Assembly (NCBI GenBank): GCA_014764605.1
Contig: JACXWG010000015.1
Span: forward strand, 1 to 33,716
Reading direction: 5' to 3'
Length of the DNA: 33,716 bases
Source of the DNA: Quinella sp. 1Q5
GTDB lineage: Bacteria > Bacillota > Negativicutes > Selenomonadales > Selenomonadaceae
Shown here: positions 7,913 to 19,121 of the stretch, in pieces
Position numbering within the stretch: position 1 is the stretch's first letter
Layout: every line of letters starts with the position of its first letter
The notes under the pieces: model-generated
Told to the model about the DNA's origin: nothing
The model's database searches: none
Seen by the model: only the letters and a program-made list of their open reading frames with translations
Position numbers and translations under genes: made by a program

Positions 7913-8713
7913 TTAAAAACCTGAACCAAGGCTTGAAAGATTTACATTAACAACCACATCTTGATAGTAAGGCTCGGTCACGGCGACGCCTTCGGGCTTA
8001 TCGAAGTCCTTCGGGCGGTTTAAATCGTCAGCGGGCACGACTATCCAAAAAACAACGTCGACTTGCCCCGAAGTCAACGCGGCGGCACGAGCTGCGCTTT
8101 CAATCTGCACGAGGTCGATATTTTTCCCGATACGTTTCGAGATTTCAGCAAGGACAGCCGTATTAAAACCCGCAGGCGTCCCGTCAGCTAGCACAAAGTC
8201 CAGCATGGGCAAATCGCCCGTGACGCCAACCTCAATCGTTTCTGCGCCGTCAATGTGCACAATCTCGACGGCAATCGGGCTCTCGTCAAACTTCGTGACG
8301 TACCTATCAATCAAGGCGTCAAGGGTGCCGTCAGCCTTCATTGCGTCAATCGCCGCGTTGAAGGAGTTCTTCAAGTCAACGTCATCTTCACGCATCGCAC
8401 AGCAAAAGTTATCTACAAGAGGAACGGTTTGATTCTCATTGATTTGGTAATCGGGATTGTTCGCCGCCATGTACTTTGCAACGCTACCATAAGTTTGAAT
8501 CGCGTTGATGTTGCCCGCCGACAAAGCCATTTGCATTGAATTGAAGTTGTCGTAGAAATTCATCTCGCCGCCTCCGGAATACTTCGCGGCTTGTTCGGGC
8601 GTGGTGTTCAGCTGAGTGAGCGTTCCGACTTTGATTGACTGTTGCTTGTCCTGCGACGAGCCGCACCCGCTAACCGTCAGAATCACCAGCAGTAGCAGAA
8701 AAATCTTTCTCAT
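7913..8713 (-). CDS. SBP_bac_3-like substrate-binding lipoprotein with unusual lobe order
   Basis: 266 aa; lipobox LTVSGC; lobe-2-like YDNFNSMQMALSAGNINAIQTYGSVAKYM / AMREDDVDLKNSFNAAIDAMKADGTLDALIDRYV precedes lobe-1-like IEVGVTGDLPMLDFVLADGTPAGFNTAVLAEISKRIGK. Confidence 0.75.
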   Translation of the reverse strand: MRKIFLLLLVILTVSGCGSSQDKQQSIKVGTLTQLNTTPEQAAKYSGGGEMNFYDNFNSMQMALSAGNINAIQTYGSVAKYMAANNPDYQINENQTVPLVDNFCCAMREDDVDLKNSFNAAIDAMKADGTLDALIDRYVTKFDESPIAVEIVHIDGAETIEVGVTGDLPMLDFVLADGTPAGFNTAVLAEISKRIGKNIDLVQIESAARAAALTSGQVDVVFWIVVPADDLNRPKDFDKPEGVAVTEPYYQDVVVNVNLSSLGSGF

Positions 8714-11268
8714 TGTCCTAATTCCTTCCTTGCTTGTTGTTGCAGTTCATACAGTTTACCCATTGCCTCAATCGGCGTCAAGCTGGGCACGTCGATAGCT
8801 AGCAAATCTTTAAAGCCCTGTGCAACGAACATATCAGGCGCGGAACCTTTCCTGTTGATGACGGGGCGGACGGGTTCGGACTTCTCCATTGACTTTAGAA
8901 TTTCTTCCGCACGTTTCATCACGGACTTTGGAAGCCCGGCTAGCTTTGCGACTTGAATGCCGTATGATTTATCTGCGCCGCCCTGCCGTATTCGACGTAA
9001 GAAGATAACTTCGTTGCCGCGTTCCTTGACCGCCACGCAGAAATTTTCTATCCGCGCTGAAGTCTCCGCTAAATCGGTTAGCTCGTGATAATGCGTGGCG
9101 AACAGAGTTTTAGCCCGAACTTTTTTATCAATGTACTCAATCACGGCGCGGGCAATGCTCATGCCGTCGAAAGTCGAAGTACCGCGCCCAACCTCGTCTA
9201 GGATAATCAAGCTCCGGTCTGTCGCGTACTTGAGGATTTGCGCTACCTCGTTCATCTCGACCATAAAGGTTGATTGCCCGCTTACAAGGTCATCACTCGC
9301 GCCTATCCTCGTGAAAATCCTGTCGACGGGGCAAAGGTTCGCGCTCGCCGCCGGAATGAAACTGCCCGCCTGCGTCATCAACGTCAAAAGCGCAACCTGC
9401 CGCATGTAAGTCGACTTGCCCGCCATGTTCGGTCCGGTGATTATCATCATCGCGCAACGGTTCGGGCTTAAGCTCGTGTCATTCGGTACAAACAGACTGC
9501 TGGTTAAAATCCTCTCAACCAAAGGATGCCGCCCGTCGCGAATGTCAATCGTTCCGTCAATATTCAGGTCGGGGCGCGTGTAGTTGTTCAGGTGCGCCGC
9601 CTCCGCCATAGAGGCGATAACGTCAATCAACGCAAGCCGCTTGGCGGTGTCCTGGATTTGCGGCAGACGAGCCTTAACGCGGTCTCGAACTTCGCAGAAG
9701 AGATTGTACTCAAGATTAACTATGCGCTCCTGCGAACCGAGTATTTGCGTCTCGTACTCTTTAAGCTCCTGCGTGATATAGCGTTCGGCATTGCTCAGAG
9801 TTTGCTTGCGAATGTAATTGGCGGGAACTTTGCTTGCTCCGCTGTGCCGCACCTCGATATAGTAGCCGAAGACGCGATTATAGCCGACCTTCAACGCCCG
9901 AATTCCCGTCTTAGTTCGCTCGCGTTCCTCAATGCCTTGCAGGACAGCCTTATTATCAACCGACAGGCGACGCAGATTATCAAGGTCTTCATTGTAGCCG
10001 CTGTTGATGATGCCGCCGTCCCGCACGGACAAGGACGCGTTCTCGCTGATTGCCTCGCCGATAAGTTTTGCCTCGTCGCTGAAGTCCCCTAAACCGTTTC
10101 GGCACGCGGCAAGAATATCGCTAGTCACGTCGCGGAGAATTTCTTTGACCTTCGGCAGGGCAAGCATAGAAATTTTTATCGCCGTCAAGTCGCGGGCATT
10201 AGCCGAGCCGACTTCAATCTTAGTCATCAGCCGTTCAAAGTCGTGAATATCCTTTAGAGCCTCGCGTAAATTTCGCCGCGTCGTGAAATTCTTAAAAAGT
10301 TCCTCCACGGCGTCGAGTCGTCGATTAATCGCGGTAATGTCCACGAGCGGGCTTTCAAGCCAACGACGTAGCAGACGATTGCCAAGGGCGGTTTTCGTAC
10401 AGTCCAGCACGTCGAAGAGCGTATCCTTCTTTGAGCCGTCGCGCAGGTTCCGGACGACCTCCAGATTTCTTAAAGCCGTCGCGTCAAGGACAAGATGATT
10501 GCTCATGTCAAGGCGGGTGAGCTTTGCGATATGCTTTAGGTCGGTGCGCACGGTCGAATGAATGTACTGCAGGAGATTTTCTACGGCACGGGCGGCAAGC
10601 TCGGCGGCTGGCAAGTCGTCCGCATTGAAGTGTTGCTCGGAAAAGTTCTCGGCGGAATTCTGCGCGGCGTCAGTCGTCGTGAACGTGCAACCGTCAAGCT
10701 TAAGGTCAGCGAAGTTCTTCAGCCGCTTTAGGAAGGTCAGCTCGCCCGCGATTAAAATTTCATGCGGGCTGAGGCGGTAGAGTTCGTCGAAGAGATTTTG
10801 TTCGCGATTAGCCCCGTCATAGAGTGCGTAGAAGATTTCGCCCGTGGAGATGTCCGCACCCGCCAAGGAAAGTTCTTCGCTGCCCTCGGCAATCAACGCA
10901 AGGTAATTGTTGCCCGCCGTCGTCAAAGCGTCTTCAGTCAGAATCGTGCCCGGCGTGACGATTTTGGTTAGTGCACGTTCGGTTAAGCCTTTAGCCTTGG
11001 GGTCGCCGATTTGGTCGACGATTGCCACGCGATAGCCTTTGGCAACGAGTTTCTGCAAGTAACCTTCGACGGCATGGGCGGGAACGCCGCACATAGGCAC
11101 GCCTTGCCGTTGAGTGAGCGTCAAGCCGATTTCCTTTGAAGCAGTCAAAGCGTCCTCGTTGAACATCTCGAAGAAGTCGCCTAGACGGAAGAACAAAAGC
11201 TCGTTGGGGTGCTGCGTCTTCTGTGCGTGATACTGTTCCATCATCGGCGTTAAAGTTTTGTCGTTCAA
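8710..11268 (-). CDS. mutS: DNA mismatch repair protein MutS
   Basis: 852 aa; TPMMEQYHAQKTQHPNELLFFRLGDFFEMF, Walker A TGPNMAGKSTYMRQ, DEVGRGTSTFDGMSIA, FATHYHELTDL. Confidence 0.98.
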   Translation of the reverse strand: MNDKTLTPMMEQYHAQKTQHPNELLFFRLGDFFEMFNEDALTASKEIGLTLTQRQGVPMCGVPAHAVEGYLQKLVAKGYRVAIVDQIGDPKAKGLTERALTKIVTPGTILTEDALTTAGNNYLALIAEGSEELSLAGADISTGEIFYALYDGANREQNLFDELYRLSPHEILIAGELTFLKRLKNFADLKLDGCTFTTTDAAQNSAENFSEQHFNADDLPAAELAARAVENLLQYIHSTVRTDLKHIAKLTRLDMSNHLVLDATALRNLEVVRNLRDGSKKDTLFDVLDCTKTALGNRLLRRWLESPLVDITAINRRLDAVEELFKNFTTRRNLREALKDIHDFERLMTKIEVGSANARDLTAIKISMLALPKVKEILRDVTSDILAACRNGLGDFSDEAKLIGEAISENASLSVRDGGIINSGYNEDLDNLRRLSVDNKAVLQGIEERERTKTGIRALKVGYNRVFGYYIEVRHSGASKVPANYIRKQTLSNAERYITQELKEYETQILGSQERIVNLEYNLFCEVRDRVKARLPQIQDTAKRLALIDVIASMAEAAHLNNYTRPDLNIDGTIDIRDGRHPLVERILTSSLFVPNDTSLSPNRCAMMIITGPNMAGKSTYMRQVALLTLMTQAGSFIPAASANLCPVDRIFTRIGASDDLVSGQSTFMVEMNEVAQILKYATDRSLIILDEVGRGTSTFDGMSIARAVIEYIDKKVRAKTLFATHYHELTDLAETSARIENFCVAVKERGNEVIFLRRIRQGGADKSYGIQVAKLAGLPKSVMKRAEEILKSMEKSEPVRPVINRKGSAPDMFVAQGFKDLLAIDVPSLTPIEAMGKLYELQQQARKELGQ

Positions 11269-11404: not shown

Positions 11405-12498
11405 ATGCAACCAAGACGCAAGGCAATACGAGCAGGGATTTTATTTATCGCGCTGATGATAGTTAGCGGCGTGGTGCTGATGTATCGCGGCAATGATGCG
11501 GTGGTGCTCGCCACGCAAAAGAAGGACGGAATTTTGACGGCGGAGCAAATTAAGTTATCATTCGACTCAGTGGGCGGGCGATTAATTAACGAGGCTGTTC
11601 GCGAAGGTCAGGAAGTCAAAGCGGGGCAAGTAGTCATGGAACTCGACGCGACGGACACGACCCTAGCGATAGAAAAGCTCACGGCGCAGATTGCACAGCT
11701 AGACGCGCAAATCAATTCGACATCGGGCAACATGCGTACAAGCTTATTCAAAGTCACTAACGACGAGCAACAATCCTTCCGGCAAATCGATAGCCAACGC
11801 GGAGCCGTCAATGCGGCACGAGCGACGCTATCCAATGCCGAACTCGATTACAAACGTAAGGCGGAACTCTTCAAGGAGGGCGCGATTGCAAAATCTCAAC
11901 TCGACGATGCAACTATGGCTCTCAACGTGGCACGCGCTAACGTCGACACTCAACAACAACTCCTAGACCGATTGTTAGCGGGCATAGCGGACACAGGCGC
12001 GACTGATTCATTGCGTTTGCCGACGATATAGCAGGAACGAGCTACGGCTGAGAACATTCAAAACGACATCGCCGCCCTAACTCAGCAAAAGAAAATGTTA
12101 GAGGTTCAGCTTAAGGAACTTGAGGTCGCTAAGTCCCGATTGACATTGCACGCGCCCGAAGACGGCAAGATATTATCAATCCTGCAGAAGCAAGGCGAAA
12201 TGATTTCTCCAAACGTGCCAGTAGTCTTGCTTGAGTCTAAGCGCGTTTACTGCGACATTTATCTTTCGGAAGAGCAAGCGGTCAATCTGCACGAAGGCGA
12301 CGCGATAATTTGCTGGACTGTCGCCGACGATAAAGAGGTTCGCGGGACGATTCGATTGTTGACGCAGGCTCCTGGCTTCGCAGACCTAAAGCAGTCGCGG
12401 AAGAAGGGCAAGCCGACTTATCGGCGTTCCAAGTGCGAATCTACATTGACGAGCCGGAAAAAGTTTTGGCGGGTCAAACGGTTACGGTTAAATTCTAG
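11405..12498 (+). pseudogene. HlyD/EmrA-type membrane fusion protein of an ABC exporter, disrupted by an amber stop and a frameshift
   Basis: ORFs 11405-12031 and 12095-12502 are in the same frame, separated only by TAG 12029-12031; near 12390 a frame change gives AVAEEGQADLSAFQVRIYIDEPEKVLAGQTVTVKF* ending at TAG 12496-12498. Confidence 0.88.
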
Positions 12499-12506
12499 GT
12501 GACGGC

Positions 12507-12998
12507 ATGGGCTTTATAAATTCATTCAAAGACGAGATTAAGTTTCTGTTCAGCGGCAAGGGTATGCCTTACGAGAAAGTTTGCTTGATGGTCGCGATGA
12601 TTATCAGCGTGTTCTTGAGACTGATACTCGCTGGGAACTTTGAAGAAGACATTGCCGCCTTTGAACAGGTCAGTTTGGGCGGCTACATCCCCTCCGAACT
12701 CAACGCTGCGGCTTATGAATTCCTAAACAAACTGCGGCAAGTGATTCCGAGTGAGATTGAAGTTAAAATCCGCGTGGAGGTCGGCGAGCCAGCAGAAGAG
12801 ATTTTCAACGCGTCGGCGGCTTATGATTTGGTCGTCATGGGCAATCGGGGCTTCGGTAGCTTTGACGTGGAGGGCCTAGGCTCCGTCGCTAAATATGTGC
12901 AAGAGAATTGCTCTAAGCCGATTATCTTTGCTAAGGGGATGCCTTTGGACTGGGACGAAGAAAATAATTTCGTCGGCGGCGCGAACACGTGGAAGTAA
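12507..12998 (+). pseudogene. chimeric ORF: ABC-2 permease-like N-terminus fused to C-terminal part of a UspA-type universal stress protein
   Basis: N-term MGFINSFKDEIKFLFSGKGMPYEKVCLMVAM is permease-like; C-term VEVGEPAEEIFNASAAYDLVVMGNRGFGSFDVEGLGSVAKYVQENCSKPIIFAKG is Usp-like; ATP-binding N-terminal Usp motif absent. Confidence 0.65.
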
Positions 12999-13084
12999 GG
13001 TAAGAAAATCGCTTACCGAACAAAAATTACTGATAAAAATTTTTGAAGCTAGCAATGCTCATGCCTTGCTTATAAGTGCGGTGA

Positions 13085-13435
13085 CTTGCTCCGAATATCA
13101 ACTATATCGTCAGCAATCCGCCTTTTGTTGGTCATAAATGGCGCACGCCCGCGCAGGTCGAAGATATAAAGCTTGCTTTTCTCAACTACGCCAAACAAGG
13201 CGAAAGCGTCCGCGTCATGTGGGAATATTTCTTTGGCAAAGGCATCGCGATTAACTTCGCTCACCGAACTTTCAAGTGGACGGGGGGAAATTACCGACAT
13301 CGCCGTCGTTCTGAACTTGTTCGCAAATTCCGATTGAAAAGTCCGCCTGCCTCCGTCAGAGGCGATGCCGACACTCCCGCGCTTTTCACTCAAATTCGAC
13401 AGCCTAAAACAAATTTTCTTGTCGCGTAGAATCAG
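13085..13435 (+). pseudogene. remnant of a class I SAM-dependent DNA methyltransferase, MmeI/type IIG-like
   Basis: One reading frame contains NYIVSNPPFVGHKWRTPAQVEDIKLAF (NPPF motif IV), WEYFFGKGIAINFAHRTFKW and ADTPALFTQIRQPKTNFLVA, with intervening sequence deleted or frameshifted. Confidence 0.7.
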
Positions 13436-13449
13436 CTCGCCAAAAAGCA

Positions 13450-14000
13450 TAATACTTGCCGTAAAAAGAGTCGGTCGCCGATAGAAGCAATTAAAATTAT
13501 CGGCGTGTTCTTCAAATCGTCAGCGGTGAGTGAATCAAGTTAGGCAAGCGAATTTTTACTCGGCAATTCAGCATAAAAATATTCAGTAGGCAGAAAAAAA
13601 TTTAGCCTATTGTTCAGATGGCTTGCGACGCAAGTCGTTAATAACAATGTCGACTTTTTCTCTTCGCAACGGGTTGTAAAGTTCTTCATGTGTTCTCTGT
13701 GTAAGCTCAATAGCAAGGTCAGGAAATTTTTCGCTGAATTCGGCAACTATCTTTATCAAACATAATCTATTAAGGTTACGAAGATATCCAATAGAAATTT
13801 TTTGTTCCGAGCTGTTAGCAAGATTTACCGTATCTCGTAGTAATAAGTCAAAGTTATTGATTATCAACAGACTTTTGCTATAAAAAATCTCCTGCTAGAG
13901 TGAGAAAACATTTTCTGTCTTCCCTTAGCAAGAGTGTTACGCCCAATTCTTTTTCCAACAGTTGCAACTGCTGAGAAATCGCCAACTGCGAAATGAAACA
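13450..14000 (-). pseudogene. LysR-family transcriptional regulator remnant with multiple frameshifts
   Basis: HTH part ISQLAISQQLQLLEKELGVTLLLREDRKCFLTLAG, then shifted frame EIFYSKSLLIINNFDLLLRDTVN...ISIGYL...KFPDLAIELTQRTHEELYNPLRREKVDIVINDLRR, then further frames EYFYAELPSKNSLA and DSLTADDLKNTPIILIASIGDR. Confidence 0.8.
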
Positions 14001-14065
14001 GTCGCCGCCGCGCCCGTTGAAGTCATAATCAACATCATCAACGCGATTAACAGTAATTTTTTCAT
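14000..14065 (-). pseudogene. orphan signal-peptide start fused to the LysR remnant
   Basis: Minus-strand ATG at 14065 with GAGGTG SD gives MKKLLLIALMMLIMTSTGAAAT..., then runs out of frame into LysR-derived sequence. Confidence 0.5.
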
Positions 14066-14075
14066 GAATCACACC

Positions 14076-16103
14076 TCATGGGCTGAATTGAACCTTAACA
14101 GTAGTGCCTTTATCGACGATTTCGCCCGCGCCGATACTTTGACTGACTGCAAAGCCAGAACCTTCCGCCGCGAAGGAAATTCCAGCCTCGTTAGCGATTC
14201 TAGCCGCCTCACGAATACTTTTTCCGTAAAAATTCGGTACGCGAGCGGCTTCTGGGGCGATTTCTTCTTTTGGCGTGTCAATTTGCGGTTCAGGCTCGCT
14301 AGGAGTCTCTCTGCGCGGAAGATTTTCGATTAAAGCATCGCCCTCGCCGACTTCGGCTCCCAATTCGTCAGAATCAATGCCTAAAGGCGCGTCGCTCGGT
14401 TCAATCCTCATGTAGCGGAAGATTTGCGAAAAAATTCGGCTTGCGACGGGCGCGGCAATCTGTCCGCCGTAAAAAACGCCGTAAGGCTCATCAATCACCA
14501 CGAGCAACGCAACTTGAGGACTTTCGACGGGTGCGAAGCCACAAAACGACGCAATATATTTGCCTTCGTCGTAGCCCCAGCCGTATTCGCTGACTTTTTG
14601 GGCGGTACCGGTCTTTCCAGCCACGCGATAGCCACGGACAGTCGCCTTACGTCCACCGCCCGCCGCAACGACCTGTTCAAGCAATCCGACCAAAGTTTTA
14701 TCCGTCGCAGAGTCAATCGTCCGCCGAACTTCTTCAACGTGCGTTTCAGAATAAGTCGAGCCGTTCGCGTTCTTAATCGACTTGACGATATGCGGTCTAA
14801 GCAAAATTCCGTCGTTGGCAATGGCGCAAAAGGCGGTTATGAGTTGTAGCGGCGTGACTGCGATACTTTGACCAATAGCCATCGTTGCAATATCCGAATC
14901 AACCATTTCTTCGGGCTGATACAAAATGCCAGCCTCCTCGCCGGGCAGTTCAATCCCCGTCGGCTCACCGAATCCAAAAAGTCTCGCGTAGTCAATCAAC
15001 TTATACGCGCCGAGGTCGTAGCCGAAAATCGCAAAGCCCGTATTCAACGACTGCTTAACCACGTCAGCAAAAGTCACCGTGCCGAAGCTCGCGCCGTTCC
15101 AGTTCTGAATCTTCTTGCCAGAAAAGGTCACGTAGCCTGGGTCGACGAAGACTTGATTGGGAGCAACGATACCTTCCTGCAAGAGAGCCGCCGCCACTAC
15201 CGCTTTGAACGTCGAGCCCGGCTCGTAGATGTAAGAGACGGATTTATTTTTCCAAATCTCTTGGTCGTAATCCCAGAAACGGTTCGGGTTGTAAGTCGGA
15301 CGATTTGCCATTGCTAAGACTTCGCCTGTCCGCGGATCCATTGCAATGCAAGTTATCGCCACGGGCTCGTTTTCCGCCATTGCCCTATCAAGTTCCTGTT
15401 CGACGATAAATTGAATCGCACTATCAATCGTCAGCTGAATCGTCTTGCACCGGTCACCTTGATAACCATGCGGCGTGAAGATTGATTCGAGTATCGGACG
15501 CTCCTGCGTGTCGGCGTAGATGAATGACTCCGTGACCTCGCCTTTAATGTACTTGTCCAACGCCTGCTCTATGCCGTCAAGCCCTTTGTCGTCCGTGCCA
15601 ACGAAGCCCAGAACGTTAGCCGCGAGCATGTCATTGGGATAATATCGCTTAGCCTCGTCGCGGAAGCCTAAGCAAACCGCGTAACCTTTCTCACGAATCA
15701 AAGCGCGGACTGCTTCATACTCCGATTGCTCAAGACGCCGCTTAACCCACGAGAACCCGCCGCCAACCGCTATATCCGCTAAGATGTCCTCTTCCGACTT
15801 GTCGATAAGCGGCGATAAGTCTTTGGCAAGTTGCGCGGCGTCCTCGACGTGATTGGGGTCGACGAACAATGATTTAGTCATCGTGCTCACGGCTAGTTCA
15901 CGTCCGTTGCGGTCGACGATTGCTCCTCGCGGCGACTGCACCGAGTAATCATGCCCGACTTGATAACGCATCCTCTCGGCTAGCTCACTGCCCTGAACCA
16001 GTTGCAACCACCCATAACGGAAAACGACGACGCCCATTAGCCCAAGCAAGACAAGGACCAGTCGCGTGATTCTCTTCTGGACGAATTCCCTATCCTTGTT
16101 CAT
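14076..16103 (-). CDS. class B penicillin-binding protein (PBP2/FtsI/SpoVD-type transpeptidase) with one C-terminal PASTA domain
   Basis: 675 aa; N-terminal TM, SPRGAIVDRNGRELAVS, GSTFKAVVAAALLQEG (SxxK), SLN, GKTGTAQK; C-term VPNFYGKSIREAARIANEAGI...KGTTVKVQFSP. Confidence 0.92.
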   Translation of the reverse strand: MNKDREFVQKRITRLVLVLLGLMGVVVFRYGWLQLVQGSELAERMRYQVGHDYSVQSPRGAIVDRNGRELAVSTMTKSLFVDPNHVEDAAQLAKDLSPLIDKSEEDILADIAVGGGFSWVKRRLEQSEYEAVRALIREKGYAVCLGFRDEAKRYYPNDMLAANVLGFVGTDDKGLDGIEQALDKYIKGEVTESFIYADTQERPILESIFTPHGYQGDRCKTIQLTIDSAIQFIVEQELDRAMAENEPVAITCIAMDPRTGEVLAMANRPTYNPNRFWDYDQEIWKNKSVSYIYEPGSTFKAVVAAALLQEGIVAPNQVFVDPGYVTFSGKKIQNWNGASFGTVTFADVVKQSLNTGFAIFGYDLGAYKLIDYARLFGFGEPTGIELPGEEAGILYQPEEMVDSDIATMAIGQSIAVTPLQLITAFCAIANDGILLRPHIVKSIKNANGSTYSETHVEEVRRTIDSATDKTLVGLLEQVVAAGGGRKATVRGYRVAGKTGTAQKVSEYGWGYDEGKYIASFCGFAPVESPQVALLVVIDEPYGVFYGGQIAAPVASRIFSQIFRYMRIEPSDAPLGIDSDELGAEVGEGDALIENLPRRETPSEPEPQIDTPKEEIAPEAARVPNFYGKSIREAARIANEAGISFAAEGSGFAVSQSIGAGEIVDKGTTVKVQFSP

Positions 16104-18817: not shown

Positions 18818-19121
18818 CATCAAGGAACTTTTCTACCTTTTCATAATCTTCGTCTCTGAAAAGTTTAATGCAAGCTTCTCGATTGTACGGATTGTCATAC
18901 TGATGAAAAGGAGGCGTTTGACGAACTCAAGATTAATATCGCATTCCACATTGAGAGCCGCGCAGAGTTTCGCCGCTGTGGAAGTACTCAACGGCTTTTT
19001 CCAAGTTGAAATTATCGCGGAGTTCTTCAAGCGTTCGCACTTCGAGATTATCTTTGAGCCTAAGAGCGAACATTCCCTGGTGTCGACCGCCAACCATGTT
19101 CGTTGCTTTCAAGTTTGCCAT
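18818..19121 (-). pseudogene. hypothetical MANLKATNMVGG-type protein, frameshifted
   Basis: Frame 1 MANLKATNMVGGRHQGMFALRLKDNLEVRTLEELRDNFNLEKAVEYFHSGETL, frame 2 AALNVECDINLEFVKRLL, frame 3 HQYDNPYNREACIKLFRDEDYEKVEKFLDVAKNF* read on without long overlap. Confidence 0.6.

What the first reader, a model, noticed from the sequence alone, without database searches (positions are those of the whole stretch)
11405..14072. A 2.7-kb gene graveyard between mutS and the PBP gene
At least four unrelated genes are each broken in consecutive order: HlyD (stop + frameshift), an ABC-2 permease/UspA chimera, an MmeI-like methyltransferase relic and a LysR relic joined to an orphan signal peptide. Flanking genes look intact. 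This suggests an accessory islet captured mid-decay, or a deletion hotspot.
Basis: partly seen in the sequence, partly recalled or inferred. Interest (0 to 1): 0.7.

Follow-up and report, generated by a model that had tools for sequence, protein, structure and literature searches.

The report
Broken-gene scar at a rearrangement junction
In the genome of an uncultured ruminant-gut bacterium (a Quinella relative), five neighbouring genes are all broken where pieces of chromosome that are apart in its closest relatives have been joined; it is a clear but ordinary example of bacterial gene decay.

Summary
From 11405 to 14072 the sequence is tiled almost end to end by broken genes whose intact counterparts exist in other members of the genus (Quinella-like Selenomonadaceae, ruminant gut MAGs). 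These are an HlyD adaptor (premature stop plus one-base loss), an ABC-2 permease with a C-terminal Usp domain (1140 bp lost in frame), a type IIG restriction-methylase relic (three fragments), a LysR relic, and the first 25 codons of a secreted FlgT/LPP20-like protein.

Three details of the reading change. The permease-Usp 'chimera' is a natural fusion: one gene in 31 Quinella-type loci, two adjacent genes in 33 Selenomonas/Mitsuokella-type loci. The 'orphan signal peptide' is the start of the gene that normally follows the PBP gene. It is not one accessory islet: HlyD, the fusion and the FlgT-like gene are genus genes at their usual neighbours. In the two nearest relatives mutS-hlyD-fusion and PBP-flgT lie on different contigs, so the scar marks a rearrangement junction, eroded by deletions. 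None of the other 65 genus genomes searched shares it.

HlyD decay looks recent (dN/dS 0.045, like mutS). A FliM/N-like gene at 18830-19121 is also broken. Reads were not available. Interest is low.

The parts
8710..11268 (-). mutS, intact left flank
   Evidence: 852 aa, all MutS Pfam domains; 97% aa identity over full length to G032; dN/dS 0.047
11405..12498 (+). HlyD-type periplasmic adaptor pseudogene: TAG at 12029-12031, one-base loss near 12400
   Evidence: alignment to intact orthologs in G032, G005, G015, G061, G065
12507..12998 (+). ABC-2 permease-Usp fusion with an in-frame 1140-bp internal deletion at about 12640 (543 aa in relatives, 163 aa here)
   Evidence: domains; fusion natural in 31 loci
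12999..13035 (+). intergenic DNA resembling what normally follows the Usp end (G017-type)
   Evidence: alignment of downstream intergenic regions
13036..13093 (+). decayed left part of a short dispersed palindromic repeat of Quinella genomes
   Evidence: alignment; 31 exact copies of the core in G010, 0 for the reversed control
13088..13426 (+). type IIG restriction enzyme-methylase relic in three fragments; junctions near 13196-13204 and 13311-13319
   Evidence: tblastn to the intact 897-aa homolog L149; PADLOC REase_MTase_IIG 1086.6 bits for that homolog
13422..14011 (-). LysR-type regulator relic: start missing, frameshifts, internal loss
   Evidence: Pfam HTH_1 5.7e-9 and LysR_substrate 2.6e-7 on pieces; about 67% nt identity to genes in G032, G027, G017; tblastn; alignment
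13990..14065 (-). first 25 codons of the FlgT/LPP20-like secreted protein gene that follows the PBP gene in relatives, joined to the LysR relic through a short shared sequence
14076..16103 (-). penicillin-binding protein gene, intact right flank
   Evidence: 675 aa; Transpeptidase, PBP_dimer, PASTA; 98.8% aa identity to G032; dN/dS 0.035
18830..19121 (-). second site of decay: FliM/FliN-C-like gene reduced to residues 1-54 and 76-100
   Evidence: intact 290-aa gene in G032 and G061

Best explanation
The region is a rearrangement scar filled with pseudogenes. In this lineage the chromosome was broken just after the permease-Usp gene and just inside the gene following the PBP gene, and the ends came to lie together with pieces of a restriction-methylase gene and a LysR gene between them. 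The relics were then whittled down by illegitimate deletions, some at short repeats. The adjoining HlyD and permease-Usp genes were disabled more recently, by one nonsense change, one base loss and one in-frame 1140-bp deletion. Shown: the broken state of each gene, the intact relatives, the separate location of the two flanks in relatives, and short shared sequence at two junctions. Inferred: the order of events, their irreversibility, and that reads would confirm each lesion. Predicted consequence: loss of this HlyD/ABC-2 export system and of the secreted FlgT-like protein, with no replacement function for the scar.
For: Tiling by relics. In G032 and G061 (92-95% nt identity) mutS-hlyD-fusion and PBP-flgT lie on different contigs (C387/C311; C8/C48). 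In its own genome the fusion's native downstream genes lie on C59, after a dead 79-bp Usp tail, and residues 165-331 of the FlgT-like gene lie at the end of C62. None of the other 65 genus genomes searched has the arrangement. Short shared sequence at the methylase junction (about 9 bp) and the FlgT/LysR junction (about 8-13 bp). HlyD from the stop on: 8 changed (non-synonymous, stop or frameshift) against 21 synonymous codons, versus 1 against 22 between G032 and G061, Fisher p=0.034. No other copy of the fusion and only weak HlyD paralogs (34% identity or less) in its own genome.
Against: The source is one MAG (83% complete, 4% contamination, 132 contigs), without reads. C62 ends inside the FlgT-like gene, so a mixture of strains or an assembly join cannot be excluded. 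The 1140-bp deletion shows almost no homology at its ends. The HlyD comparison splits the gene post hoc at the stop, counts the stop and frameshift themselves, and numbers are small.
Confidence: 0.77

Rival explanations
1. Assembly or binning artefact: the contig joins unrelated pieces or strains, and the stop and indel are consensus errors.
For: MAG with 132 contigs; own-genome C62 ends within the FlgT-like gene at 97-98% identity to G032, whereas the window runs from the same gene's first codons into LysR; two different Usp tails in one bin.
Against: A false join would link otherwise intact pieces; here the LysR and methylase relics carry frameshifts and nested internal deletions, the permease loss is internal and in frame, and changed codons cluster after the HlyD stop. 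Nearly all other comparable genes in the window are intact, so a generally error-rich consensus is unlikely.
Confidence: 0.12
2. A once-complete accessory islet (export system, restriction system, regulator) inserted between mutS and the PBP gene and now decaying.
For: The type IIG methylase and LysR relics have no native neighbour here, and their matches in relatives lie in unrelated surroundings.
Against: HlyD and the fusion lie beside mutS in G032 and G061, and the FlgT-like gene beside the PBP gene; a mutS-PBP interval was not found in those relatives. The two relics lie in opposite orientations and abut each other within genes.
Confidence: 0.06
3. Some remnants stay functional: the 163-aa in-frame ORF could be a membrane-anchored partial Usp protein.
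For: The 1140-bp loss keeps the frame; the Usp nucleotide-binding motif G-2X-G-9X-G-S is intact; dN/dS of the Usp part is 0.11, similar to G032-G061 at 0.14.
Against: The first part of the Usp fold is missing, its HlyD partner is broken, one in three deletions keeps the frame by chance, and low dN/dS is also what a recent loss leaves.
Confidence: 0.05

Closest known systems
Bacterial pseudogene clusters and deletion-biased genome erosion (general knowledge)
   Same: Stops, frameshifts, nested deletions, short repeats at some deletion ends, relics of different age side by side.
   Different: Nothing essential; here the cluster coincides with a rearrangement junction, and the rest of the window is nearly intact.
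HlyD / ABC-2 permease / Usp gene set of Selenomonadaceae (Selenomonas ruminantium ATCC 12561, L143; Quinella-type MAGs)
   Same: Same gene order and sequence family as the broken genes at 11405-12998.
   Different: Separate permease and Usp genes in Selenomonas, a fused gene in Quinella-type genomes, broken here.
Type IIG restriction-methylase (PADLOC REase_MTase_IIG)
   Same: The intact homolog of the relic is a full-length member (1086.6 bits).
   Different: The relic keeps only about 110 residues, including the NPPF motif, in three pieces.

Membership tests
Pseudogene cluster | Reading frames disrupted relative to intact homologs | tested here: met
Pseudogene cluster | Relaxed constraint after inactivation | tested here: inconclusive
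   HlyD overall dN/dS 0.045 equals mutS and PBP; excess of changed codons from the stop on, p=0.034
Pseudogene cluster | Lesions supported by reads | not testable with these tools
   no reads held
Accessory islet | Block present between the same two flanking genes in some relatives and absent in others | tested here: not met
   mutS and PBP genes lie on different contigs in G032 and G061
ABC-2 permease-Usp fusion | ABC2_membrane and Usp domains in one ORF in intact relatives | tested here: met
   PF12698 3.6e-28 and PF00582 1.1e-19 in a 543-aa ORF
Type IIG restriction-methylase | Full-length nuclease-methylase-specificity protein | tested here: not met
   only fragments in the window; intact homolog L149 does meet it
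FlgT flagellar assembly protein | FlgT domains above curated cut-off | tested here: not met
   FlgT_N 23.0 bits, cut-off 28.8

The most novel reading that the evidence does not exclude
The scar is one visible piece of a wider recent loss in this Quinella-like lineage, including the flagellum: the FlgT/LPP20-like gene and a FliM/N-like gene 4.8 kb away are both broken, and no FliG was found in the held genome, although 60 of 66 genus genomes have one. A genus reported as motile would then hold a non-motile species.
Probability: 0.2. Interest if true: 0.35.

Novelty: new member of a known kind. Interest (0 to 1): 0.17.

Why it matters
It gives a cross-section of gene loss: old relics (about 67% nt identity), a methylase relic and freshly broken genes sit side by side, with deletion end points readable against intact relatives. 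It also shows a clear gene-fusion series (adjacent genes in Selenomonas, fused gene in Quinella-type genomes, deleted here), which suggests that the Usp protein and the ABC-2 permease work together. Otherwise it is ordinary genome erosion.

Tried and rejected
2) A simple inversion between the Usp end and the FlgT-like gene, suggested by G064 where the Usp end and the PBP gene lie about 17 kb apart on one contig: rejected as a full account, because in the own genome the Usp-downstream genes lie on C59 behind other genes, not beside the FlgT remainder. 3) The window's methylase relic as a remnant of the 612-aa ORF next to the PBP locus in G032 (L023): no similarity found. 4) Rfam search of the dispersed repeat: no match; no unusual fold stability. 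5) Papers on ABC-2/Usp fusions: nothing relevant found. 6) The Quinella genome paper does not contain the words pseudogene or transposon.

Full report
Source. The window is contig C127 of a 2.1-Mb MAG in 132 contigs, 83% complete. Relatives found with the permease-Usp protein are ruminant-gut Selenomonadaceae MAGs, one of them named Quinella sp., so I call the genus Quinella-like. The nearest genomes, G032 (also G062, JAFQZB01) and G061 (JAFWWC01), match the flanks at 92-95% nucleotide identity.

HlyD. The frame opening at 11405 is a membrane-fusion adaptor. It meets TAG at 12029-12031 and loses one base near 12400, while G032, G061, G065, G005 and G015 have no such lesions in the aligned stretches. 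Over the codons before the frameshift dN/dS to G032 is 0.044, the same as mutS (0.047) and the PBP gene (0.035), so the gene was under selection until recently. From the stop on there are 8 changed (non-synonymous, stop or frameshift) against 21 synonymous codons, while G032 and G061 differ there by 1 against 22 (Fisher p=0.034; the split was chosen after seeing the stop, and the stop and frameshift are counted).

Permease-Usp. In relatives one 543-aa ORF carries an ABC-2 permease and a Usp domain. Among 80 loci, permease and Usp are one ORF in 31 (Quinella-type), separate neighbouring genes in 33 (Selenomonas, Mitsuokella and others), permease only in 11, and unresolved at contig ends in 5. 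So the chimera is a natural fusion. The window copy lacks exactly 1140 bp at 12640, in frame. No other copy is in the held genome.

Between the Usp end and the PBP gene. After about 37 bp of intergenic DNA like that of relatives comes the left part of a dispersed palindromic repeat. Then three fragments of a type IIG restriction-methylase, directly abutting a LysR relic on the other strand, which is joined to the first 25 codons of the 331-aa secreted protein gene that follows the PBP gene in relatives. Short shared sequence is visible at the first methylase junction and at the FlgT/LysR junction, none of note at the 1140-bp deletion.

Arrangement. In G032 and G061 mutS-hlyD-fusion and the PBP gene lie on different contigs, in G061 with more than 60 kb downstream of the fusion on its contig. 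In the window's own genome the fusion's usual downstream genes are on C59, preceded by a dead 79-bp Usp tail and a split histidine kinase gene, and the rest of the FlgT-like gene ends contig C62. The interval is therefore most likely a junction between chromosome parts that are separate in relatives. None of the other 65 genus genomes searched carries the arrangement.

Scope of decay. Of the genes comparable with G032 across the window, nearly all are intact. The clear exception is a FliM/N-C-like gene, 290 aa in G032 and G061, reduced to fragments at 18830-19121. FliG was found in 60 of 66 genus genomes but not in this one; with 83% completeness this is only a hint. A published study found nearly all flagellar genes in four Quinella bins (PMC9585023).

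Verdict. Well resolved and biologically ordinary: localized gene decay at a rearrangement junction. The main uncertainty is that a single MAG without reads supports it.

Noticed in passing
window 13036-13093; L178-L189; G010 genome: Short dispersed palindromic repeat (core GCTAGCAATGCGCNNGCGTTGC) with 31 exact copies in G010, 1-3 in nine other genus genomes including 2 in the own genome; none for the reversed control; no Rfam match.
   Followed up: partly
L069-L148 (permease-Usp loci): ABC-2 permease and Usp genes are adjacent in Selenomonas/Mitsuokella-type loci and fused in Quinella-type loci; Usp nucleotide-binding motif kept. Suggests functional coupling.
   Followed up: partly
window 18830-19121: FliM/FliN-C-like gene broken; intact 290 aa in G032 and G061.
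   Followed up: yes
own genome (G000): No FliG_C match, while 60 of 66 genus genomes have one; G080 (99% complete) also lacks it.
   Followed up: no
L156 (G000:C59) 13082-14058 and 14994-15072: Split histidine kinase gene beside a dead 79-bp Usp tail: a second decayed spot, at the place where the fusion's usual downstream genes lie.
   Followed up: partly
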